Under the pieces are notes generated by a model. It was not told the DNA's origin and ran no database searches. It saw nothing but the letters and a program-made list of their open reading frames with translations. Shown here in pieces: positions 1,067-10,326 of a DNA stretch of 64,000 bases. Origin of the DNA: Armatimonadota bacterium (GTDB lineage: Bacteria > Armatimonadota > HRBIN16); contig BPGT01000004.1 in NCBI GenBank assembly GCA_026003175.1, forward strand, positions 139,570 through 203,569, given 5' to 3'. The position numbers and the translations under genes were made by a program. Within the stretch, counting starts at the first letter, position 1. Every line of letters starts with the position of its first letter.

Positions 1067-1142
1067 CGCGGGGTGGAGCAGCGGTCAGCTCGCCGGGCTC
1101 ATAACCCGGAGGTCGAGGGTTCAAATCCCTCCCCCGCACCCA
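1067..1142 (+). tRNA. Initiator tRNA-fMet (anticodon CAT), CCA encoded
   Basis: A complete cloverleaf can be folded. The acceptor stem CGCGGGG pairs with CCCCGCA with the C1-A72 mismatch typical of bacterial initiators. The anticodon stem has the three consecutive G-C pairs (GGG/CCC) flanking CTCATAA, the other initiator hallmark. The T arm is GAGGG-TTCAAAT-CCCTC. The discriminator base is C, and CCA is encoded at 1140-1142. The 3' part from tRNA base 11 onward is the left attachment site of the element that follows, so the integration reconstitutes the tRNA. Confidence 0.95.
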
Positions 1143-1150
1143 AGACCGCT
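1077..1150 (+). repeat. attL: 74-bp direct repeat covering the tRNA-fMet 3' part
   Basis: Starts at tRNA base 11, includes the anticodon and T arms and CCA, and extends 8 nt past CCA. It is identical to 8859-8932. The sequence on either side differs between the copies, which defines the repeat ends. Confidence 0.93.
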
Positions 1151-1202
1151 ATATGTTGTGTGCCTGACCTCTCAAACAGCAAAGACCCCACTACATGTTG
1201 TG
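1151..1202 (+). promoter_or_regulatory. Left integrase arm-type site pair (putative)
   Basis: ATATGTTGTGTGCC (1151-1164) and CCACTACATGTTGTG (1188-1202) both contain ATGTTGTG. Exact inverted copies of both occur next to attR (8835-8848 and 8807-8821). Such paired inner sites on both ends of an element are what lambda-type integrases bind with their N-terminal domain. Binding is inferred. Confidence 0.65.
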
Positions 1203-1235
1203 CCTCCACCCAAAACACAAACGGGAGGCAAAAAC

Positions 1236-2162
1236 ATGCAGACCGCCGGATTCGTCATCACTGACACAAACCTTCGGGCAGCATTGGAGGTATGGCTGGA
1301 GTCACTGCAAGCACGTAAACTGTCCACCCGCACCGTGCAAAGCTACCGCGAACACGTCACCCCCTTCGTGGCTTTCCTGCAACAGCAGGGTTGTGCAGAC
1401 TTTGACGACGTGCAACCCTTCCACATTCGCCGGTGGCTACTCTACCGCCAGCAGCAAGGCATCAGCACACACACGCTGTTTAATTGCTACCGCAACCCGC
1501 GAACATTCTGGAACTGGTGCATCCGTGAAGGCTTGACTACACACAACCCCTTCGCGAAGGTGGAACCGCCCAAGCGCGAACAGGTGCTTAAACCTGCCCT
1601 GACGCCTGAGGAGGTGGAGAAACTGCTGCAGGCGTGTGAAGGCAAGCACTGGCTGAATCTTCGCGACAGGGCGTTGATTCTGCTGCTGCTGGACACGGGA
1701 CTGCGCATCCACGAGTGTCACCAGTTGCGTGTGGGCGACGCCATGCAAAACACGCTGGTCATCAGGGGCAAGGGCGGTAAGCATCGCGTGGTGGTGCTGA
1801 GTGCAGAGGTGAGGCTTGCCCTGCACCGCTACCTGAAGGCTTATCAAGCACAGCGGGGAGTGAAACTGCAGGCAGACAGCCCGCTGTGGCAGGGGGACAG
1901 GGGTACACTCACCTTAGAGGGGCTGAAGGTAGCGGTGCGCAAGGCAGGCAAGCGTGCAGGCTTGCGGTTAGGTGCGCACCAGCTACGGCGCACCTTCGCC
2001 ACATGGTCTCTGCGCAACGGCATTACGCTGGAACACCTGAGGCTTCTCATGGGACACAGCGACCTCAAGACAACGCTGCAATACCTGGCGTTGGTGGAGG
2101 ACGACCTGAAGGCTGCCCACGAAGCGCATTCGCCGTTGAATCTTCTCAGGGGACGCAGGTAG
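1236..2162 (+). CDS. Tyrosine recombinase/integrase of the element
   Basis: A 308-residue site-specific recombinase of the XerD/phage integrase family that would integrate and excise the element at tRNA-fMet. The N-terminal SAM-like core-binding domain (about residues 10-110) is followed by the catalytic domain, which shows Arg in DTGLRIHE, Lys in GKGGKHR, HQLRRT (HxxR), LMGHSD and the nucleophile Tyr in TTLQYL. I chose ATG 1236 because GGGAGG lies 7 nt upstream; the frame is open upstream to 1158 but there is no ribosome site there. It reads inward from attL, and convergent with the next gene. Confidence 0.93.
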   Translation: MQTAGFVITDTNLRAALEVWLESLQARKLSTRTVQSYREHVTPFVAFLQQQGCADFDDVQPFHIRRWLLYRQQQGISTHTLFNCYRNPRTFWNWCIREGLTTHNPFAKVEPPKREQVLKPALTPEEVEKLLQACEGKHWLNLRDRALILLLLDTGLRIHECHQLRVGDAMQNTLVIRGKGGKHRVVVLSAEVRLALHRYLKAYQAQRGVKLQADSPLWQGDRGTLTLEGLKVAVRKAGKRAGLRLGAHQLRRTFATWSLRNGITLEHLRLLMGHSDLKTTLQYLALVEDDLKAAHEAHSPLNLLRGRR

Positions 2163-2177
2163 AGGAGGAGGCGGGCG

Positions 2178-2810
2178 TCACGACGCGCCCGCCTCGCCGT
2201 AAAAAGCGAAGACCAGTTCCAACACATAATCCGTCACGGCGACCCAACCGCCTCGCCCGTCGGGCAAGAGTCCTGCCACTGGTTCATCATCGTCTTCGGA
2301 CATCTCCCTCAATTCCGCCAGCATTTGACGCAGGGGAAACTGCGCAATGTAGCGTAGCCACCGCCAGACACGACGGCGCACCCGTGCTGGCGGTTCGCCA
2401 CGAAGGCGGGCGAACTCGCGGACTGCTTCCTCCAGCGTGCATCCTCGCGCCGACACAATGGCGCAAACCTGTTCAAAGTCAGCGAACCAGGCGATGCGCG
2501 GCGGGCGGTATTCGCGCGTTCCGCAATACGCCTGAAAGCAAGCCGCACCAGCATCAAGGCTACCCGTGTTTTGGAAAACGCGCAGTGCCATCTCAATCGC
2601 AGCCACAACGTCCTTGCCTGGGATGCGCGCGGACAGGGCGACTTTTCGCCTCAACCACGAGGTAGTCCGGGCTGCGAAGCGACGCGCTTCCTCTGGCGAC
2701 AAACTTCCCCAGATGAAATCCTCCGCCCTCTCAATCTGCTCGTAAAATTGCTTTCGTGTGTATTTCATTCCAGACCTGTGACGTTTCGAAAATGGTCGCA
2801 AAAAAGCCAT
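2178..2810 (-). CDS. Hypothetical protein of the element, divergent from the HTH gene
   Basis: A 210-residue basic, helix-rich protein on the minus strand. I recognise no family. It is the only leftward gene in the element and begins only 52 nt from the rightward HTH gene start, the usual place for a lysogeny-type repressor. That role is only inferred from position; no clear helix-turn-helix was seen. A start at 2768 (MKYTRKQF) is an alternative to 2810, and neither has a strong ribosome site. Several Trp-Arg-rich stretches (RRRVWRWLRY) would suit nucleic-acid contact. Confidence 0.6.
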   Translation of the reverse strand: MAFLRPFSKRHRSGMKYTRKQFYEQIERAEDFIWGSLSPEEARRFAARTTSWLRRKVALSARIPGKDVVAAIEMALRVFQNTGSLDAGAACFQAYCGTREYRPPRIAWFADFEQVCAIVSARGCTLEEAVREFARLRGEPPARVRRRVWRWLRYIAQFPLRQMLAELREMSEDDDEPVAGLLPDGRGGWVAVTDYVLELVFAFYGEAGAS

Positions 2811-2862
2811 CGCCCCATTGTAACATGAAAGTGGACTTCGGTCAATGGAGGGAGAACGACCT

Positions 2863-3069
2863 GTGAAGAACCTGCTTTCGTGCGGAGACGTTGCTGAAAT
2901 GTTGGGCGTGACGCGACAGCGCGTTCACATTTTGCGCCTGACCGGCAAGCTTCGTGGCACGCGACTACGGTCGGGCTGGGTTTACCGGCGCGATGAGGTG
3001 GAACGTTACCAGCAGCAACGCGAGGCGTGGCTGCGAAAGCGAGGGCGACGCAATGAGAACCGCCGTTGA
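2863..3069 (+). CDS. Helix-turn-helix AlpA/excisionase-like DNA-binding protein
   Basis: A 68-residue protein with a MerR/excisionase-type winged helix: SCGDVAEMLGVTRQRVH is the helix-turn-helix, and RLRSGWVYRRDEVERY is the wing plus following helix. Small proteins of this kind act as excisionases or as transcription activators (AlpA) of integrated elements. GTG 2863 is preferred because GGAGGGAG (2847-2854) lies at proper distance; ATG 2845 has no ribosome site. Its 3' end overlaps the start of the primase gene by 17 nt, so they are co-transcribed. Confidence 0.75.
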   Translation: MKNLLSCGDVAEMLGVTRQRVHILRLTGKLRGTRLRSGWVYRRDEVERYQQQREAWLRKRGRRNENRR

Positions 3070-4066
3070 CGCTGCTACCCAATATGCCTCGTTGGGCTAC
3101 CGCGTCCTCCCCCTGCACGGCACCCGCGACGGGCGTTGCACCTGCGGGAAAACAGACTGCCCGTCGCCGGGCAAACATCCGCGAACTGCGCACGGGGTAA
3201 AGGACGCCTCCGACGACCCAAACGTTATTCGGCACTGGTGGTCGCGCTACCCCGACGCGAATGTAGGCATCGCCGTGCCTCCCTGCGTGGTGGTGCTTGA
3301 CATCGACCGCGGCAAAAGAGGTTTGGACAGCATTCGCGGAAAAGCGCTGCCCGATGCCGCGCCATGTTGCCGAACCGGCGGTGGTGGTTGGCACTACTGG
3401 TTTCGGTCGCCGGACGGTGTCGCGACGAAGAACAGCGCCAACATCATGCGAGGCATTGACATCCGCACCGCCGGCGGCTACGTCGTAGCACCGCCAAGCC
3501 GACACCAGACGGGACGGAACTACGAGTGGGAACAGCCTCTGGTGCCACCGGACGAACTACCGCCAGCACCGGATTGGTTGGTGCAGCTACTTGCTGCGAA
3601 AAGCGAGACGGCAAAAACAATCAAGCAGGCTGCGGTTGCGTCGTGGGGCGAAGGAACACGGCATGAGACGGCGCTGGCGTTAGCGGGTGTGCTTCGCAAA
3701 CGAGGCGTGCCCCAACCGGAAGCAGAAGCAGTCATCACAGAGATTGCTTGCGAAGCGCGTGACCCCGAACTGGAAGACCGGCTTCGCGCTGTGCGGGACA
3801 CTTACGCGAAGCCACCGGAAGCTGTTGCTGGTTTCTCGCGTCTCCCGCAGCAGCTGCGCGAGGCTGTGGATGCGCACCTGCGCAACGGAAAAGACCACAT
3901 GCAGGTGATGACAAAGTTTGTGCCACGTCGGTTCGCAGAGAAGGTTCTGCACCAGCACCGATTCTACTCGTGCGGTGACCTGCGCACTGGCGACTTCTAC
4001 CGGTCACCACGAAGACGGTGTGTGGCGCGAAGACGGCGAAGCGTTTCTCGCCAATCTGCTTCGTGA
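3053..4066 (+). CDS. Bifunctional DNA primase/polymerase (PrimPol) domain, N-terminal fragment of a frameshifted replication protein
   Basis: Residues 1-180 form a PrimPol N-terminal domain: ASLGYRVLPLHG at the start, a Cys cluster (CTCGKTDCPSPGKHPR), VVVLDIDR with the metal-binding acidic pair, GGGGWHYWF and GIDIRTAGGYVVAPPS. This enzyme class makes primers for element replication. The frame loses family similarity at about 4003 (after GDFYR), and the following helicase sequence continues in another frame. A single extra base near 4004 accounts for this. As written, the product ends in an Arg-rich out-of-frame tail at 4066. Confidence 0.85.
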   Translation: MRTAVDAATQYASLGYRVLPLHGTRDGRCTCGKTDCPSPGKHPRTAHGVKDASDDPNVIRHWWSRYPDANVGIAVPPCVVVLDIDRGKRGLDSIRGKALPDAAPCCRTGGGGWHYWFRSPDGVATKNSANIMRGIDIRTAGGYVVAPPSRHQTGRNYEWEQPLVPPDELPPAPDWLVQLLAAKSETAKTIKQAAVASWGEGTRHETALALAGVLRKRGVPQPEAEAVITEIACEARDPELEDRLRAVRDTYAKPPEAVAGFSRLPQQLREAVDAHLRNGKDHMQVMTKFVPRRFAEKVLHQHRFYSCGDLRTGDFYRSPRRRCVARRRRSVSRQSAS

Positions 4067-4943
4067 AGGCAACATCTTGCCCGAAGAGTGGAAGCGCGAA
4101 AGCCACGTGCGCGAAATTGTGGCGGACATCCGCGAGTTGTGCTGGCATGAGGACCCGCTACCGACGCCACCCCCGACACTCATACCGTTTGCCAATGGCG
4201 TGTTCGACCTGCACACCGGCGTGCTGCGAGACTACACACCCGAAGACGGCTTCACCGCCAAACTGCCCTGGCGGTACGACCCTGACGCGCACAGCGAGTT
4301 GCTGGCAGTGCGTCTTGGCGCGTTCCCCGAAGCGGTTCGGACACACTTCTGGGAGTTCCTGGCTTATTGTCTGTGGCGCGGCTACCCCTTGCAACGCGCG
4401 TTCTTCTGGATTGGCAAGGGGAGTGCAGGCAAGTCGTATCTGCTGAAACTGTTGATGTCAGCATTAGGCGCGGAGAACGTGGCGAACGTGACGCTTCATG
4501 ATTTAAGCGAGAACCGGTTTGCCGTCGCGCAGTTGCACCGCAAGCTGCTGGCGTACTCCGGCGAACTTCGCTATGACGACCTGGCACAGACGGACGCGCT
4601 GAAGAGTTTGACCGGCGGTGACCTTTTGACTGCTGACCGGAAGTACCGAGACCCTGTCACATTCCGGAACTATGCGAAGTTACTCTTCACCGGCAACGCC
4701 CTACCAATGACACACGACCGGACGGACGCTTTCTACAGACGCGCCTTCATTGTGCGGTTTGAACACCAGTTCGCCGAAGACCCCAGAATTGAGACGGAAC
4801 TGGACCTGCTGCCACCGGACGTGAGAAGCACGCGAGTTCAGCTGGCTTCTCACACAAGCGGTGGCGGTGCTTCAGCGTCTGTTGGAAAATGGGTTCCAGA
4901 TGACCGGCGACGCGTCGGTTGCAGAGAAGCGCAGGATGTATGA
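4005..4943 (+). CDS. D5-like helicase-primase domain, middle fragment of the frameshifted replication protein
   Basis: Continues the PrimPol protein after a frameshift. HEDGVWREDGEAFL opens the D5-N region, and the superfamily 3 helicase core follows with Walker A FFWIGKGSAGKSYLLK, then LLAYSGELRYDD and LLFTGNALP (sensor/Walker C type). About residue 275 onward the frame degenerates. The expected continuation (FSWLLTQAVAVLQRLLENGF) is in a third frame from about 4830. In related elements PrimPol and D5 helicase are one polypeptide that unwinds and primes the origin. Confidence 0.85.
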   Translation, partial: HHEDGVWREDGEAFLANLLREGNILPEEWKRESHVREIVADIRELCWHEDPLPTPPPTLIPFANGVFDLHTGVLRDYTPEDGFTAKLPWRYDPDAHSELLAVRLGAFPEAVRTHFWEFLAYCLWRGYPLQRAFFWIGKGSAGKSYLLKLLMSALGAENVANVTLHDLSENRFAVAQLHRKLLAYSGELRYDDLAQTDALKSLTGGDLLTADRKYRDPVTFRNYAKLLFTGNALPMTHDRTDAFYRRAFIVRFEHQFAEDPRIETELDLLPPDVRSTRVQLASHTSGGGASASVGKWVPDDRRRVGCREAQDV

Positions 4944-5046
4944 ACAGCTGTCCGACCCCATACAGCAGTTCATCGAAGAATGCTGCGAACGGACACGCCG
5001 GACGGATGATTATATGTGTTCAAGTACGACTTCACCGCCCGCTTGA
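4861..5046 (+). CDS. Third fragment of the frameshifted helicase-primase (post-helicase segment)
   Basis: AVLQRLLENGFQM through CCERTRRTDDY is the segment that follows the SF3 helicase core in PrimPol-D5 proteins. It is readable from about 4832 in this frame, and the ATG at 4861 is not a real start. The sequence is picked up again by the 5016-5444 frame as VFKYDFTARLTEWL, which marks another indel near 5012. Confidence 0.65.
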   Translation: MAVLQRLLENGFQMTGDASVAEKRRMYEQLSDPIQQFIEECCERTRRTDDYMCSSTTSPPA

Positions 5047-5444
5047 CCGAGTGGCTACAATCACGCGGAATGAACCAATACCAGGCAAGGCGCCTGAATC
5101 AGAGAATGCGGGAACTCGGCTTTGAAGAAAGTCGCAAGGGACCCGAAAAATACTGGGCATGGATTGGCTTGAAATGGCGCGAAGTTCCAGAAGTTCCAGA
5201 AGTTCCAGATTCTATAAACCGCCTTAGACTTGCTTCTAATGAGGTTGTAAATATTGGAACTTCTGGAACTCTTGGAACTGAACCCCGCCAACCGGCAAGC
5301 ACACAGGCGAACGGACAGGTGGGCTGGTGTGGCGTGTGTGGCACGACGACCGTGCACCGCCCCTACCGGCTGATGACCGGCGACTGGCACTGGGAGTGCG
5401 TCGTGTGTGGCGGCATCCGTCCGGAGGTGTTGGACGATGGGTAG
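5016..5444 (+). CDS. C-terminal winged-helix region of the frameshifted helicase-primase
   Basis: FKYDFTARLTEWLQSRGMNQYQARRLNQRMRELGFEE has the look of the C-terminal winged-helix domain of phage/plasmid primases (KYDF is VFKYDF after the indel). It is followed by a linker with three direct GTTCCAGAA-type repeats (VPEVPEVPD) and a possible zinc ribbon, CGVCGTTTV through WECVVCGGI. The stop overlaps the RNase H start (ATGGGTAG at 5437-5444), so this frame is the true end of the gene begun at 3053. Confidence 0.75.
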   Translation: MFKYDFTARLTEWLQSRGMNQYQARRLNQRMRELGFEESRKGPEKYWAWIGLKWREVPEVPEVPDSINRLRLASNEVVNIGTSGTLGTEPRQPASTQANGQVGWCGVCGTTTVHRPYRLMTGDWHWECVVCGGIRPEVLDDG

Positions 5445-5899
5445 GAAGCTGGTGCTTTACACGGACGGCAGTGTGCGCAGTGGTGGGCGTGCTGGCGTCG
5501 GTGTGGTGGTGGCTACTGAAGACGGCTACCCGCTGAAGCGACTGGGCGAACCGCTGACGGAACCGGTGACCGTGAACGAGTGCGAGTATATTGCGCTGTT
5601 GACCGGACTGCGCGAAGCGTTGCGTCTGGGCGCGGACAGCGTAGAGGTGTGTCTGGACAGCGAGCTGGTGCGCCAGCAAGTGCTGGGGAACTGGCAGTGC
5701 AACCACGAACACTTGCGCCGACTGCGTGACGAAGCACGGGCACTGCTGGCGCAGTTTCAATCGTGGACGCTTCAGCGCGTGGAAAGCCGGTTCAATCCTC
5801 TGGCGCACACTTACGCCAACATTGCAAGCACGCAGAACAGACGACGGTTCTTTTGGCAACACCCGCGAAAACACGGCAAAGGAGGTAAACGAAGCATGA
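5437..5899 (+). pseudogene. RNase H-like protein with 3' frameshift
   Basis: Residues 1-130 match RNase HI: YTDGS with the first Asp, NECEY with the Glu, CLDSELV with the second Asp. The final catalytic Asp region reads NPLAHTYANI, with His where family members have AD, so activity is doubtful. In the starting frame no stop occurs before the next gene. A shift near 5822 leads to a tail (ENTAKEVNEA) ending in TGA at 5897-5899 that overlaps the next ATG (ATGA), as for other genes here. The enzyme would remove RNA primers during element replication. Confidence 0.75.
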
Positions 5900-6335
5900 T
5901 TATTGAGTTCGCAGAACACAGTCCCCTGCCCACTGGCAGCTACCCCGCCCGTGGTGGTGGGCGTGGAACCCAGGAGCGGACAGTACGGCGAACAGCTGCA
6001 ATTCACCTTAGAGGTGACCAACGGCGAACACGCTGGGCGTCGGTTGCGGGCGTGGTGCAACCCGTCCACCAGCACCAACGGCAAAGCTCTACCGCTGGGC
6101 GCGTGCCCTGCTGGGCGAAGCCCCCACGAGGTTGGACACTCGCGAGCTGGTAGGGCAAGCGAGTGTCTGGCGCAGGTCGTGCTGCAGCAGTCCGCCTACC
6201 GGCACCGTCTACTCGCGTGTGCAAGACCTGCTGCCCGCTGATGCGCGTACGACCCCTTCCTGGAAGAAGACTGAACCGGCACAGCGGACTGGTGGGCAGC
6301 ACCCCACCAGTCCCAAAAGGAGTTTCGGAACATGA
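5896..6335 (+). pseudogene. Frameshifted small element protein (unknown function)
   Basis: AGGAGG precedes ATG 5896. The coherent protein must be read across frames: MIIEFAEHSPLPTGSY, then VGVEPRSGQYGEQLQFTLEV with RAWCNPSTSTNGK (frame of 5903), then LYRWARALLG with LDTRELVGQ, then GTVYSRVQDLLP (frame of 6132). At least three indels are needed. The order Gly-x-Tyr-Gly-x-x-Leu-x-Phe-x-Leu-x-Val resembles small beta-rich phage proteins found near replication genes. A single-strand-binding role is possible but not shown. The true stop (6333-6335) overlaps the next ATG. Confidence 0.6.
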
Positions 6336-6439
6336 ACGCGATTCAACAGACCGGCACTGTGCACCTTCTGCTGGCTGACGGGCGTGCTGGAGCAGGGCAG
6401 GCTGTTCTGATTGACAAACCTCAGCGCGATTTCGTATAG
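6332..6439 (+). CDS. Short element protein, 35 residues
   Basis: ATG 6332 follows AAGGAG (6317-6322) with a 9-nt spacer and overlaps the preceding gene's stop as ATGA, the coupling used throughout this operon. The product has no recognised domain. Its short length leaves some doubt, but both signals support translation. Confidence 0.5.
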   Translation: MNAIQQTGTVHLLLADGRAGAGQAVLIDKPQRDFV

Positions 6440-6460
6440 TAAACCAGGAGGTAATCACCT

Positions 6461-6712
6461 ATGACGCTTGAACAGCAAATCCAGATTCTTCAGATGGTCG
6501 CCGACGCACAGCCCACCTTCAGTGCGGTGGTCAACGACGTGGCGATGGTGGTTTCGCGCATCGAGCTTGCCCTTCGCGAGATGGAGGGCAGCAGTGACCC
6601 CTTCACTCAGTGGCGTGCAGGCAAATTGCGCAGACGCTTCGCGGACACACTCGCCGCGTTGGCAGCAGCTGGCGTGTCCGTGCCTCTGCCGGTTGAGGGG
6701 GTGACGTTATGA
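6461..6712 (+). CDS. Hypothetical element protein, 83 residues
   Basis: Strong ribosome site (AGGAGGT) 8 nt before ATG 6461. The product is a helical small protein with no family I recognise. The stop overlaps the next start as ATGA, so it is translationally coupled to the coiled-coil gene. Confidence 0.7.
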   Translation: MTLEQQIQILQMVADAQPTFSAVVNDVAMVVSRIELALREMEGSSDPFTQWRAGKLRRRFADTLAALAAAGVSVPLPVEGVTL

Positions 6713-7200
6713 ACTACCAGCAAGCGGTAGAACGCGCGTCGGCACTCATTGCTTCGTGGCGCGAGCTGCTGCAAGATGAGGCGAGACTGCTTGCGAGTGG
6801 TGACCGCGAAACCGTGCTTGCCACAATCACACGAAAGCACTCGTTGCCCGCCCAGGTGCACTGTGCCATCCTGCAGGCAGCGGAGGCAGCAGCGCAATGG
6901 TACGCGCAGTTGGCGCAAGATGAAGAACAGCGCATCGCCGAGTTGGACGGCGAGTTGCAGCCTCTGCTTGACGAACTCCGCCAGTTGCAGCAGCGTGTGG
7001 ACGAACTCGTGCGCGAACGGCGTGGTCGCGAACACCGGCTGACCGTCCTGCAGACCTGCCAGCGTTCGGCTGCGCAGTTGACCTCGTTGTCCAGCGACCG
7101 TGTGACAACGCCAACCGACGCCGAAGCGTGGCTTGCCAAACTGCCACCCTGCGAGGAGCCACCACCAGCGGAGCCAGCGAAACGCCTCACGGAGGTTTAG
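6709..7200 (+). CDS. Coiled-coil hypothetical protein of the element
   Basis: 163 residues, mostly heptad-rich helix (about residues 50-115, Glu/Gln/Leu-rich with LQPLLDELRQLQQRVDELV), with a Pro-rich tail (PPCEEPPPAEPAK). No enzymatic motif. Its place just before the terminase-like gene could suggest a packaging or scaffolding helper, but that is speculation. Confidence 0.7.
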   Translation: MNYQQAVERASALIASWRELLQDEARLLASGDRETVLATITRKHSLPAQVHCAILQAAEAAAQWYAQLAQDEEQRIAELDGELQPLLDELRQLQQRVDELVRERRGREHRLTVLQTCQRSAAQLTSLSSDRVTTPTDAEAWLAKLPPCEEPPPAEPAKRLTEV

Positions 7201-7208
7201 CGACAAAG

Positions 7209-8021
7209 GTGACACTTAAAAAAGGGCGCGATTGGCGTGAGAAGTTTCTGGCTGCCCTCGCGCGTGGTTGCAGCGTCAGCCAGGCAGCCAGGCTGGCAGG
7301 CGTTTCCAGACAGCACGCCTACCGGTGCAGGCAGCGCAGCAATACCTTCGCCCAGCAGTGGGAGGACGCTTGGGAACAGGGCACAGACGCGCTGGAGGAC
7401 GAAGCCGTGCGCCGCGCACTTGCCGGCAGCGACACGTTGCTGATGTTCCTGCTGAAGGCACGACGCCCAGAGAAGTACCGCGACAACGTTCGCGTGGAAC
7501 ACGACACTGGGCAGGCGATGCTTGATGCGTTGGAAGAAGCAATACGCGTGTCAAGGCTAGCTGCCAATAGTGTGGGTTGTTCGCCTGACCCCTCCGATGA
7601 CGAAGGTCGAGCGTCATCGTGGGGGGATTTTTTTCTCCACCACGACTGGTTCCCTGTATGCAGCCTTCGCCGTGTGGTGGTGCACAGCGCGCCCGTGTGC
7701 GAACCCCTTGACGACCTGCTGCCGTGCTACCATTTTCTGATTGCCAGGTCAGGCGCAGTAGCACGCGGGCTGTTCACCCTGGGTGACAACGCCTCACCAG
7801 CAACGAGGACAGGGCTACGCGAGGCACACAAGGAGATTCAACATCGGCAGCGCAGGCGTGCTGGTGGTGGGCACACAGCCCAACGAACGCCAATGGAACA
7901 GTCTGGTGCACCTGTGTCGGCGTGCTGTGTTCGCGCTACCAGCTGGATGTTCGCGACGTGCAGACACACGGCGAACTGGAACCCGACACGAACGACCTTG
8001 TGGGGTGGGGCGACCGCTTGA
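7209..8021 (+). CDS. Terminase small-subunit-like HTH protein, running into the amidase frame
   Basis: From GTG 7209 the first about 125 residues match the small terminase/HTH family: WREKFLAALARGCSVSQAARLAGVSRQHAYRCR is a helix-turn-helix, then FAQQWEDAWEQGTDALEDEAVRRAL and TLLMFLLKARRPEKYRD, all typical. These proteins recognise DNA for packaging, and in satellites they redirect helper-phage packaging. After about residue 130 the same frame enters a different protein (amidase-like, HHDWF onward) without a stop, so the original stop has been lost by an indel. No strong ribosome site was seen for GTG; an upstream in-frame start inside the previous gene is possible. Confidence 0.7.
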   Translation: MTLKKGRDWREKFLAALARGCSVSQAARLAGVSRQHAYRCRQRSNTFAQQWEDAWEQGTDALEDEAVRRALAGSDTLLMFLLKARRPEKYRDNVRVEHDTGQAMLDALEEAIRVSRLAANSVGCSPDPSDDEGRASSWGDFFLHHDWFPVCSLRRVVVHSAPVCEPLDDLLPCYHFLIARSGAVARGLFTLGDNASPATRTGLREAHKEIQHRQRRRAGGGHTAQRTPMEQSGAPVSACCVRATSWMFATCRHTANWNPTRTTLWGGATA

Positions 8022-8323
8022 GGGAAGCCATCGCCAGCGCACCGCTGCCAGAGTGTGAACCCGAAGAACCGCCAGCCTACGTCAACGTGTTCGTGGGCGA
8101 CACGAAGCTGCTGGCGAGGCAGGACGGAGGCGACCTGTGGGTTCCCCGAGCGCAGTTGCGAAGCAGGTCGGCTTGGCTTCCTGAGTTGCCGATGGAGAAG
8201 CACGTCATTTACGGCATGGAGTTGGTTTGCGTACCTTTGCGGTTGGTGCTGTCATCGCTGCACCGGCACGTTGTGTGGGACACCCGCCTTCGCGCCTTGA
8301 AACTGGAACCCCTTGAGGAATAA
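7597..8323 (+). pseudogene. N-acetylmuramoyl-L-alanine amidase (PGRP/amidase-2-like), frameshifted
   Basis: Read across three frames, the sequence follows the amidase-2 fold: RRVVVHSAPV (zinc His), YHFLIARSGAVARG, then FNIGSAGVLVVGTQPNERQW (frame of 7783), then YQLDVRDVQTHGELEPDTND (second zinc His and a possible Asp ligand, frame of 7922). A C-terminal segment with YVNVFVGDTKLLARQ follows and may bind the cell wall. A run of six G and seven T at 7620-7635 is a likely indel site. If intact it would be an endolysin that cuts peptidoglycan stem peptides. The last frame ends at 8323. Confidence 0.6.
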
Positions 8324-8352
8324 AAAAACCGCTTGCCGTCCACACCGATGCT

Positions 8353-8620
8353 GTCTTGCGATTGTTGCATCAGGTCGCCGAAATTTCGCCGACCTGATGC
8401 AAGTTTTGCAATCCAATTGTCTTGCAATTGTAGCATGAGGTCGCAAATTTTTGCGACCTGACGCAATTTTTGCAATCCAATTGTCTTGCGATTGTGGCAT
8501 GAGGTCGGCGATTTCGCCGACCTGATGCAACTTTTGCAATCCAGGCCAATCAGAACTGTCTCGCAATTGTTGCATCAGGTTACAAAAATTTGTGACCTGA
8601 CGCAATTTTTGCAATCTAAC
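8353..8620. repeat. Array of four tandem hairpin repeats, 64-75 bp period
   Basis: Units begin at 8353, 8419, 8483 and 8558 with GTCTTGC(G/A)ATTGT or a close form and end with TTTTGCAATC. Each contains an inverted repeat of 17 or more bp around (T/A)GCAT(C/G)AGGT and ACCTGA(T/C)GC. The inner stem sequence differs between units while pairing is mostly kept: GGTCGCAAA/TTTGCGACC, GGTCGGCGA/TCGCCGACC, GGTTACAAA/TTTGTGACC. No coding frame fits. Position between the last gene and attR suggests an origin, packaging or regulatory role. Confidence 0.85.
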
Positions 8621-8627
8621 TGGTCGC

Positions 8628-8692
8628 TTGACACACTTTGCTAGAGAATGCTAAGATGAAAATGACGGCGCGTAGCCGGAACTACCGCCGTC
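8628..8692 (+). promoter_or_regulatory. Possible promoter with downstream hairpin before attR
   Basis: TTGACA (8628-8633), an 18-nt spacer and TAAGAT (8652-8657) are followed at 8664-8692 by a GACGGCG/CGCCGTC hairpin. No open reading frame of note lies downstream before attR, so it could drive a short RNA, or be fortuitous. The remainder from 8693 to 8806 shows nothing I can identify. Confidence 0.3.
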
Positions 8693-8806
8693 GTGGCGTC
8701 CAGCAGGGGCGGTGCTGAACGCGGTTAGATTGTAGCACCCACTTTTAACCGCTGTCAAGCCCCCTGTTGAGACCGCCGGATTCCTGAAAATTGTCAGTCT
8801 GTGGAA

Positions 8807-8848
8807 CACAACATGTAGTGGTTCACGTTCAGCGGGCACACAACATAT
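8807..8848 (-). promoter_or_regulatory. Right integrase arm-type site pair (putative)
   Basis: CACAACATGTAGTGG (8807-8821) and GGCACACAACATAT (8835-8848) are exact reverse complements of the two left sites, at matching order from the element end. Confidence 0.65.
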
Positions 8849-8858
8849 TGTGTTTTGA

Positions 8859-8932
8859 AGCAGCGGTCAGCTCGCCGGGCTCATAACCCGGAGGTCGAGG
8901 GTTCAAATCCCTCCCCCGCACCCAAGACCGCT
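8859..8932 (+). repeat. attR: 74-bp direct repeat, tRNA-fMet 3' remnant
   Basis: Identical to attL but lacks the acceptor 5' strand and D-arm start, so it cannot be a functional tRNA. 8933-9121 beyond it is chromosomal flank with no supported gene. Confidence 0.92.
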
Positions 8933-9130: not shown

Positions 9131-9316
9131 GAGGGTGTTCGAAATTGCTGGTTGAATGGATAGATAACCTAACCCCCTTGCCCCCTTCCCTGCAAGGGAA
9201 GGGGGAACGCCCCTCTCCTCGTAGGAGAGGGGACGGGGGTGAGGTAAGGCAGGGATAGCAAGAACGCCTCTCTCCTTGCGCTACAACCAACTTCTCAACA
9301 ATTCTCGAACACCCTC
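9131..9316. mobile_element. MITE copy 1 (186 bp)
   Basis: Ends in inverted GAGGGTGTTCGA repeats and carries two internal C/G-rich hairpins. Two further 186-bp copies lie at 33462-33647 and 33657-33842 in the opposite orientation and differ by a few bases. There is no coding capacity. The termini match those of the neighbouring IS, which therefore probably supplies the transposase. Confidence 0.85.
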
Positions 9317-9325
9317 TCGAGCTCT

Positions 9326-10314
9326 GAGGGTGTTCAAAAAATCGGTTAGTATCGGGTATACCGATTCCATGAAACGACGATACCTACCACAAAGCAGACT
9401 CACTACCCTGTCGGTGAAGGTCATCTTCACCATCGTCCAACGCTTCTGCCAAATCCATCCTCTGCCCCCACGCCGCGGGCGACCCTACAAATACCCCGAA
9501 GCGCTCATCCTCACCCTCCTCTTGCTGGGAGTGCGCGAAAACGCCTCCTACCGACGCCTACTGTTCGCCCTCGCCCCAGAACTGCTGCCCGACCAACCCC
9601 TGCCTGTTGCAGCATCTTGCAGACGAACGCCTGCACCAACTGCTCACTTGGCTTGCCCAGCAGGGCATCGCGTCAGAGACACCGACCCGTGAAACGCCGT
9701 GTGTGTTTGTGGATGGCACGGGCGTGGGGTATGCCTCACCGTTTTTGGCGCAGTATTTGCGTGGGGCACAGGTACGTCAGCAGCGGTCGCATGTGAAGGT
9801 GGTGGCGTTGGGGTGTTGGCAGGGGGGTCGGGTGTGGGTGATGGGGTTATCGTGTGGGGGGGCATATGCGGATGAGGGGCGTCTGTTGTGGGAGTGGGTG
9901 GAGCGTCATGGGCTTGGTGGTTTGTCGTGTGGCACTTTATTAGTTGGGGACGGGTTGTATGGTTATCGGGCGCAGTTATTGGTTGCGTTGGAGCGTGCGG
10001 GTTGGTTGCCTGTGGCAGTGGTTCGGGATGGCGTGTGGCAGCAGGTGCGTGCGGATGCGCGGTTGCGTGCGCGTGCACGTGCGCAGACATATGGTTGGGC
10101 GTTGCGGGAGCGTTATCGGATAGAGCAGGTGTTTGGTAGTGTGAAGGGAGCTTATGGGAGTGTGTGGCGAGCGCGTTCGTGGGTGGTTGCACGGGTGTGG
10201 GTGTGGGGCATGTTTGTGTTGTGGAACATGGTGGGTGTGGTGCAGGTGGCTGGTAGCGGTTGTTTTGTGTGTTGGTGGTGGGTGTGGGGTCTATGCGATT
10301 TTTCGAACACCCTC
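9326..10314 (+). mobile_element. Insertion sequence, 989 bp, DDE transposase
   Basis: Left end GAGGGTGTTCAAAAAATCG and the inverted right end differ at one of 19 positions. It encodes a frameshifted DDE transposase. It is separated from MITE copy 1 by nine bases (TCGAGCTCT), and the pair shares one outer 9-bp target duplication. The family could not be named with certainty; the 9-bp duplication and DDE_Tnp_1-like motifs are the usable clues. Confidence 0.85.
9369..9692 (+). CDS. IS transposase, N-terminal fragment
   Basis: MKRRYLPQSRL start inside the IS. A helix-rich N-terminal domain follows with GRPYKYPEALILTLLLLG and NASYRRLLFAL, the usual DNA-binding/dimerising part of DDE_Tnp_1 enzymes. 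Similarity stops at about 9600 (DQPLP), and the catalytic part continues in another frame. Codon third positions here are rich in C, unlike the second half. Confidence 0.75.
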   Translation: MKRRYLPQSRLTTLSVKVIFTIVQRFCQIHPLPPRRGRPYKYPEALILTLLLLGVRENASYRRLLFALAPELLPDQPLPVAASCRRTPAPTAHLACPAGHRVRDTDP

Positions 10315-10326
10315 TTTCCCTCTTGA
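9607..10326 (+). CDS. IS transposase, catalytic C-terminal fragment (DDE)
   Basis: LQHLADERLHQLLTWL joins the N-terminal fragment after a frameshift. The catalytic triad is visible as FVDGTG (Asp), LLVGDGLYGYRAQLL (Asp) and RYRIEQVFGSVK (Glu with downstream Lys). The frame runs through the right inverted repeat and stops at TGA 10324-10326, beyond the element and inside the katG -35 box. The coding strand here is strikingly poor in C and A. Confidence 0.8.
   Translation: MQHLADERLHQLLTWLAQQGIASETPTRETPCVFVDGTGVGYASPFLAQYLRGAQVRQQRSHVKVVALGCWQGGRVWVMGLSCGGAYADEGRLLWEWVERHGLGGLSCGTLLVGDGLYGYRAQLLVALERAGWLPVAVVRDGVWQQVRADARLRARARAQTYGWALRERYRIEQVFGSVKGAYGSVWRARSWVVARVWVWGMFVLWNMVGVVQVAGSGCFVCWWWVWGLCDFSNTLFPS
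10315..10323. repeat. 9-bp target duplication, right copy
   Basis: TTTCCCTCT following the IS right end. Its last T is the first base of the katG -35 hexamer. Confidence 0.8.

What the first reader, a model, noticed from the sequence alone, without database searches (positions are those of the whole stretch)
1077..8932. PICI-like phage satellite integrated in the initiator tRNA of a non-model lineage
Seen: 74-bp direct repeats at both ends, integrase next to attL, HTH (AlpA/Xis-like) gene, PrimPol-D5 helicase, RNase H, TerS-like protein, amidase, and no structural, large-terminase or conjugation gene in 7.8 kb. Known: PICIs/SaPIs carry integrase, excisionase/AlpA, primase-helicase and often TerS, and depend on a helper phage. 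Inference: this is a satellite of a new family, and the use of tRNA-fMet as target is itself notable.
Basis: partly seen in the sequence, partly recalled or inferred. Interest (0 to 1): 0.82.

Follow-up and report, generated by a model that had tools for sequence, protein, structure and literature searches.

The report
Decayed PICI-like satellite in initiator tRNA
This 7.8-kb stretch is a worn-out copy of a mobile element that probably hitchhikes inside bacterial viruses; sister copies, many of them intact, sit in many tRNA genes of hot-spring Armatimonadota bacteria, a group for which I found no earlier description of such virus parasites, and they share a previously uncatalogued structured RNA.

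Summary
A 74-bp identical repeat (1077-1150, 8859-8932) bounds a 7.8-kb element in an intact tRNA-fMet gene. It carries an integrase, AlpA-type HTH, PrimPol-D5 primase-helicase, RNase H, small terminase and an amidase remnant, and no structural gene.

It is one of a family. I found 14 complete elements of 5.5-8.4 kb in the host genus (Armatimonadota), five kinds in this genome, each in a tRNA gene; 12 carry a recognisable TerS. They are mosaics, some 94-99% identical between species whose core gene is 79% identical, and empty fMet sites exist. So they move.

They share the PICI-type origin: two iteron sets flanking AT-rich DNA, here inside the primase gene. They also share a covarying structured RNA absent from Rfam, with a consensus promoter, always 33-298 nt upstream of int in the excised circle.

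Best reading: a TerS-bearing, PICI-like satellite family that replicates itself and redirects helper-phage packaging. Excision, packaging and a helper are not shown, and this genome has no prophage. Strict PICI membership fails on size and the amidase. The window copy is decayed: primase, SSB and amidase are frameshifted. The fMet target is not special.

The parts
1067..1142 (+). intact tRNA-fMet(cat), the integration target, rebuilt by the element end
   Evidence: ARAGORN; only intact initiator tRNA gene seen in this genome
1077..1150 (+). att core next to the integrase (74 bp identical to the other copy)
1189..1202 (.). 14-bp palindrome CACTACATGTTGTG, left arm/accessory site
   Evidence: such sites lie near one or both ends of all 14 genus elements, 0-1 hits in their interiors
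1236..2162 (+). tyrosine recombinase (XerC/D-like, 308 aa), intact
   Evidence: PF00589 3.8e-28; NCBIfam XerC 1.1e-53, below its cut-off; dN/dS 0.34 against the G004 fMet copy
2178..2810 (-). conserved reverse ORF, unknown function
   Evidence: 99% identical in E2; homologues in S4G and S3R; no Pfam, PHROG, PADLOC or NCBIfam hit
2845..3069 (+). AlpA/Xis-type HTH_17 protein
   Evidence: PF12728 5.2e-9
3053..4066 (+). PrimPol half of the primase-helicase, cut off by a frameshift
   Evidence: PF09250 2.7e-39; the E2 homologue is one 829-aa ORF
4009..4943 (+). D5_N/DUF5906 helicase half, second frame
4861..5444 (+). C-terminal fragments of the primase-helicase in two further frames
   Evidence: phmmer to the E2 primase: 1e-24 and 3e-51
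5181..5279 (.). putative replication origin: three direct 9-bp iterons GAAGTTCCA, AT-rich 5209-5254, inverted iterons
   Evidence: 0/500 dinucleotide shuffles
5437..6153 (+). RNase H-like protein (domain ends near 5900)
   Evidence: RVT_3 8.4e-16; fused to the SSB domain in E2
5897..6241 (+). frameshifted remnant of a DUF669-type SSB
   Evidence: phmmer 6e-11 to the E4 SSB; PF05037 on the E5 homologue
6461..6712 (+). small protein of the TerS_A module
   Evidence: 95% identical in E5
6709..7200 (+). coiled-coil-like protein of the TerS_A module
   Evidence: 80% identical in E5
7209..7566 (+). terminase small subunit (TerS_A); the frame runs on to 8021 because the stop is lost
   Evidence: PHROG 4044 6.7e-21 on the E3 homologue; Foldseek top five hits Sf6 TerS, probability 0.96-0.99; dN/dS 0.12-0.37
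7560..8323 (+). frameshifted amidase_2 remnant
   Evidence: intact in E3, E5, S4M (260-268 aa), PF01510 26.5-27.2 bits, cut-off 26
8351..8622 (.). four 64-75-nt repeats, each a long palindrome (TTGCATCAGGT..ACCTGATGCAA); candidate packaging site
8628..8657 (+). promoter TTGACA-N18-TAAGAT
   Evidence: read from the sequence; aligned
8624..8775 (+). structured RNA region (two covarying hairpins), inferred leader of int in the circle
8807..8820 (.). 14-bp palindrome, right arm/accessory site
8839..8852 (.). 14-bp palindrome, right arm/accessory site
8859..8932 (+). displaced tRNA-fMet 3' part, att core at the far end

Best explanation
The locus is a decayed member of a family of small tRNA-integrating phage satellites of Armatimonadota. 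In an intact member a tyrosine recombinase, with an AlpA-type factor, excises the element from a tRNA gene. In the circle the right-end promoter and its structured leader RNA lie just upstream of int, so int is read from the circle. The primase-helicase fires at two iteron sets inside its own 3' end. The element's TerS marks its concatemers for the large terminase and heads of an infecting helper phage; an amidase in one subgroup may aid release. Shown: boundaries, empty and occupied sites, shared gene set, origin architecture, RNA covariation and position, TerS homology, recent movement between tRNAs and between species. Inferred: excision, int control, replication, packaging, helper. The window copy has an intact int but a broken primase, so it would need a primase from elsewhere.
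For: Fourteen two-ended elements, all in tRNA genes, 5.5-8.4 kb, no structural genes in their ORF lists. TerS_A: PHROG 4044 6.7e-21; 89 IMG/VR loci encode relatives; of the 80 kept, 69 have a large ORF starting within 1 kb downstream, and 32 of 40 such ORFs scanned match PHROG 2 TerL; the top Foldseek hits are Sf6 TerS. TerS_B has the same helix layout, best hit a phage protein 2AO9. Two-sided iteron origin in nine of nine elements, 0/500 shuffles, the published PICI layout (PMC6092414). fMet site empty in G002, G001 and G005 and occupied in G004. Element DNA 94-99% identical across species against 79% for a core gene. E5 sits in two tRNAs of this genome at 99.7-99.9% identity. RNA: 8 of 21 pairs with two-sided changes in 12 sequences, 0-2 of 500 shuffles; same strand as int and just upstream of it in the circle in 15 of 15 elements.
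Against: No excision, particle or transfer data. This genome and eight of nine relatives have no prophage by TerL or portal search, so no helper is identified; the candidate phages in G004 carry TerS genes without detectable similarity to the satellite TerS. None of the elements was found among viral contigs. Two of 14 elements (L181, L182) have no recognised TerS. TerS_C (E4) rests on position only.
Confidence: 0.8

Rival explanations
1. Integrative plasmid: an int-rep element that excises and replicates but spreads by natural transformation or as cargo, the TerS being a leftover.
For: Distant plasmids carry the same primase type. No helper prophage in this genome. L181 and L182 lack a recognised TerS.
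Against: TerS recurs in 12 of 14 elements in unrelated types, and TerS_A is under purifying selection. The closest short plasmid match (Thermaerobacter, 33% identity) itself carries a TerS and an integrase. The PICI-type origin is said to occur in no other known replicon (PMC6092414).
Confidence: 0.12
2. Decayed prophage: a phage remnant that lost its structural genes.
For: TerS and amidase are phage genes. A G004 phage contig (L149) has a related integrase and primase, and then a TerL.
Against: All 14 elements lack structural genes and stay at 5.5-8.4 kb, with intact int, primase and TerS in many; the same-site relative S4M also lacks them. Shared int, RNA and origin define an own lineage.
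Confidence: 0.04
3. IME mobilised by conjugation.
For: Size and tRNA target are common in IMEs (own knowledge).
Against: No relaxase among the window ORFs or among the family genes identified in relatives.
Confidence: 0.02
4. The right-end hairpins act as DNA (recombinase or replication structure) rather than as RNA.
For: Always next to att or int; hairpins can also form in single-stranded DNA.
Against: A TTGACA-N17/18-TATGAT promoter is aligned in front of them in most members; strand and distance to int are kept even when int lies on the other side of att (E5, S4T).
Confidence: 0.25

Closest known systems
PICI (SaPI and Gram-negative PICIs)
   Same: int, HTH regulator/AlpA, primase-rep, then origin with two iteron sets around AT-rich DNA, then terS; no structural genes; mostly rightward order as in Gram-negative PICIs
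   Different: 5.5-8.4 kb instead of 12-15; amidase in the TerS_A subgroup; tRNA targets; iterons inside the primase reading frame; structured int-leader RNA; other host phylum; induction and helper untested
PICMI (Vibrionaceae)
   Same: minimal size; int + AlpA (PF12728) + DUF5906 primase, the same Pfam markers used for PICMIs (PMC10803314)
   Different: PICMIs sit at fis and lack terS; these use tRNAs and most carry TerS
P4-like satellites
   Same: P4-family primase-helicase; P4 itself uses a tRNA site (own knowledge)
   Different: no sid, psu or delta found; TerS present; PICI-type origin
Tycheposons / VEIMEs
   Same: small integrative elements, tRNA targets in tycheposons (own knowledge), proposed phage-borne transfer
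   Different: marine; gene content not compared here
Thermaerobacter sp. FW80 'plasmid' NZ_CP037897
   Same: int, MerR, HTH, P4-type primase (33% identity), TerS (PHROG 6299 1.2e-14)
   Different: recorded as a circle in Bacillota; no two-sided iterons found

Membership tests
PICI | integrase + replication module + master regulator in conserved order | tested here: met
   whether HTH_17 is the master regulator is not tested
PICI | origin: two iteron sets flanking AT-rich DNA at the 3' end of rep | tested here: met
   against PMC6092414
PICI | no phage structural genes | tested here: met
   14 of 14 elements
PICI | no lytic genes | tested here: not met
   amidase_2 in all seven TerS_A elements
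PICI | size about 12-15 kb | tested here: not met
   5.5-8.4 kb
PICI | att sites never used by prophages | tested here: inconclusive
   no tRNA near the examined G004 phage loci, but phage ends were not mapped
PICI | phage-dependent induction and packaging | not testable with these tools
   needs a culture and a helper
PICMI | integration at fis, no terS | tested here: not met
   tRNA targets and TerS
P4-like | capsid-size and helper-control genes sid, psu, delta | tested here: not met
   none among Pfam/PHROG hits
cf-PICI | own capsid genes | tested here: not met
   none in 14 elements
IME | relaxase or oriT | tested here: not met
   no relaxase hit in Pfam scans; oriT not searched
phage satellite, generic | transfer in particles of a helper phage | not testable with these tools
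   TerS homology only

The most novel reading that the evidence does not exclude
A previously undescribed structured RNA defines a clade of tRNA-integrating satellites and controls the integrase: it is the leader of a promoter joined to int only in the excised circle, so integrase is made after entry or excision and shut off by integration itself.
Probability: 0.4. Interest if true: 0.72.

Novelty: new variant of a known kind. Interest (0 to 1): 0.6.

Why it matters
Characterised phage satellites come mainly from Firmicutes, Gammaproteobacteria including Vibrio, marine cyanobacteria and Actinobacteria (PMC10803314, PMC11389934). A family in hot-spring Armatimonadota with a PICI-type origin bears directly on whether PICIs are co-ancestral or convergent. 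The int-leader RNA gives a search handle (it found elements in a second family of the phylum by RNA alone) and a testable control circuit. Five kinds in one genome, with cross-species copies, make this a natural system for satellite exchange.

Tried and rejected
Viral contigs searched with the primase alignment, the RNA pattern and the amidase: no relatives. Genome contigs with the primase: none. PDB search by TerS sequence: nothing relevant. Literature: no paper on Armatimonadota satellites found in the held library; subscription papers are missing. Rejected: sequencing error as the cause of the E1 frameshifts, because E2-E5 in the same assembly are intact over the same genes, although reads were not seen. 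Rejected: the palindrome array as a replication origin, because it travels with one TerS_A subgroup (E1, E5, S4T, S4M, S4G) across three primase types, and the iterons fit better. The PHROG scan failed on a coordinate slip and was repeated in part. The E2 row of the 'rev' gene was read on the wrong strand and is not used.
Full report
OBSERVATION. The repeats, the genes and the absence of structural genes are as described. The 74 identical bases are 1077-1150 and 8859-8932; tRNA-fMet at 1067-1142 is intact. In element E2 of the same genome the primase-helicase is one 829-aa ORF; here it is spread over several frames. The SSB and amidase are also frameshifted and the TerS frame runs on into the amidase. 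Integrase, HTH, RNase H and the TerS core are open.

HOST AND FAMILY. A core gene of the host finds, by record title, genomes such as HRbin16, an Armatimonadetes MAG and a Chthonomonadia MAG, so the host is an Armatimonadota. Searching the host genome with the element gave related DNA at several places. Four are complete elements bounded by direct repeats in tRNA genes: E2 Gly(gcc) 6.9 kb, E3 Leu(cag) 6.9 kb, E4 Gly(tcc) 8.2 kb, and E5 8.4 kb. In genus relatives I found nine more complete ones: G004 Thr(cgt) (S4T), fMet (S4M), Gly(gcc) (S4G), Arg(cct), Arg(tcg); G003 Arg(tcg) (S3R); G002 Gly(ccc) and one more (L184); G007 Leu(cag). All lack structural genes. The fMet target is therefore one choice among many.

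GENE MODULES. The usual order is int, reverse ORF or regulator, HTH, primase, RNase H/SSB, VRR nuclease, small proteins, TerS, and amidase in the TerS_A group. Three primase types (PrimPol-D5, PrimPol-AAA25, DnaG-AAA25) and at least two TerS types are shuffled between elements. TerS_A is in seven elements, TerS_B in four; E4 has a third, weakly supported candidate; L181 and L182 have none recognised.

TERS. The E3 homologue hits PHROG 4044 at 6.7e-21. Relatives are encoded in 89 IMG/VR loci; of the 80 kept, 69 have a large ORF starting within 1 kb downstream, and of 40 such ORFs scanned 32 match PHROG 2 TerL, with other TerL families matching more. In a phage contig of the same phylum (L037) the homologue precedes, with one small ORF between, a gene related to viral TerLs and portal-like genes. 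The predicted fold has Sf6 TerS as its top five hits (probability 0.96-0.99, E-values 0.17-0.68). dN/dS is 0.12-0.37.

ORIGIN. In nine of nine elements tested, a 9-bp iteron set, AT-rich DNA and an inverted set lie inside the 3' end of the primase gene. The iteron sequence differs between elements (GAAGTTCCA here, GTAACAGAA in E2, E3 and S4M, others elsewhere), and none of 500 shuffles matched any of them. Similar arrays occur in several of the second-family loci. Fillol-Salom et al. [quoted passage not shown]

RIGHT END. Beyond the amidase lie four 64-75-nt palindromic repeats, present only in one TerS_A subgroup. Next come a consensus promoter and two hairpins. In 12 elements 97% of cells pair, and 8 of 21 pairs show two-sided changes (27 cells against 9.1 in shuffles). 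No Rfam family fits. In the genus all 19 genome hits lie in or at the end of tRNA-associated elements where I could check them; some on short contigs of G009 were not followed in full. In a second family of the phylum the model alone led to tRNA-bounded elements with int and DnaG-type primases. An alignment of 27 matches, one of them a weak antisense hit, has 16 covarying pairs, but it was fitted to the model. In 15 of 15 two-ended elements the RNA is on the int strand and 33-298 nt upstream of int in the circle. In 13 of them att lies between, so the two are joined only after excision; in E5 and S4T int follows the RNA directly. I infer an int leader; function is untested.

MOBILITY. The fMet site is empty in G002, with katG directly behind the tRNA as on the right flank of the window; it is also empty in G001 and G005. 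G004 carries another element there with a 94.6% identical left end, G009 shows att and int sequence of one, and G003 and G006 keep scars. E5 has near-identical copies whose junctions show tRNA-Lys(ctt) and tRNA-Thr(cgt); because these lie at contig ends, two copies is the simplest but not the only reading. E4 and its G004 counterpart are 97% identical over 7 kb, and the D5 half of the E3 and G004 fMet-element primases differs by about one silent change, although a core gene of the two species is 79% identical in DNA.

HELPER. None is known. This genome has a single TerL, a solitary conserved gene, and no portal hit. G004 has six further TerLs on phage-like loci with TerS candidates unlike those of the satellites. 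An infecting phage is the likely helper; this is inference.

VERDICT. A TerS-bearing PICI-like satellite family in Armatimonadota, of which the window shows a decayed member. It works like a PICI in design; it is not filed as a PICI because size and the lytic gene fail the published criteria and induction is untested.

Noticed in passing
own genome C6:140230-141564 (L030:1381-2715): A solitary large-terminase gene (Terminase_6N + 6C, catalytic motifs conserved) occurs once in all 10 genus genomes, 71-85% identical, with a conserved ~580-aa neighbour in four relatives and no phage genes nearby: a possibly domesticated TerL.
   Followed up: partly
own genome C2:52780-53041 (L201): Degenerate second fMet tRNA locus followed by remnants of an element left end, suggesting an older integration and a rearrangement of the fMet locus.
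   Followed up: partly
L227:3881-9609 (G231): Cargo-only element: att repeats at tRNA-Met and the structured RNA, but no integrase; genes read like a branched-chain amino-acid ABC transporter.
   Followed up: no
L155 (NZ_CP037897, Thermaerobacter sp. FW80): An 8.5-kb 'plasmid' record with overlapping ends (about 6.9-kb circle) carrying int, MerR, HTH, P4-type primase and TerS looks like a satellite circle.
   Followed up: partly
L231:1790-15102 (G004): 13.3-kb element in tRNA-Leu with a UvrD-type helicase cargo and the structured RNA in its middle, perhaps two elements in tandem.
   Followed up: no
window 9131-10326: Insertion-sequence-like region between the element and katG; a 170-bp end (9131-9300) recurs at 99-100% identity in C1, C2 and C5.
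   Followed up: no
L149 (G004:C14): Phage contig with an integrase and primase related to those of the satellites, then an HTH gene directly before TerL: a candidate helper or ancestor.
   Followed up: partly
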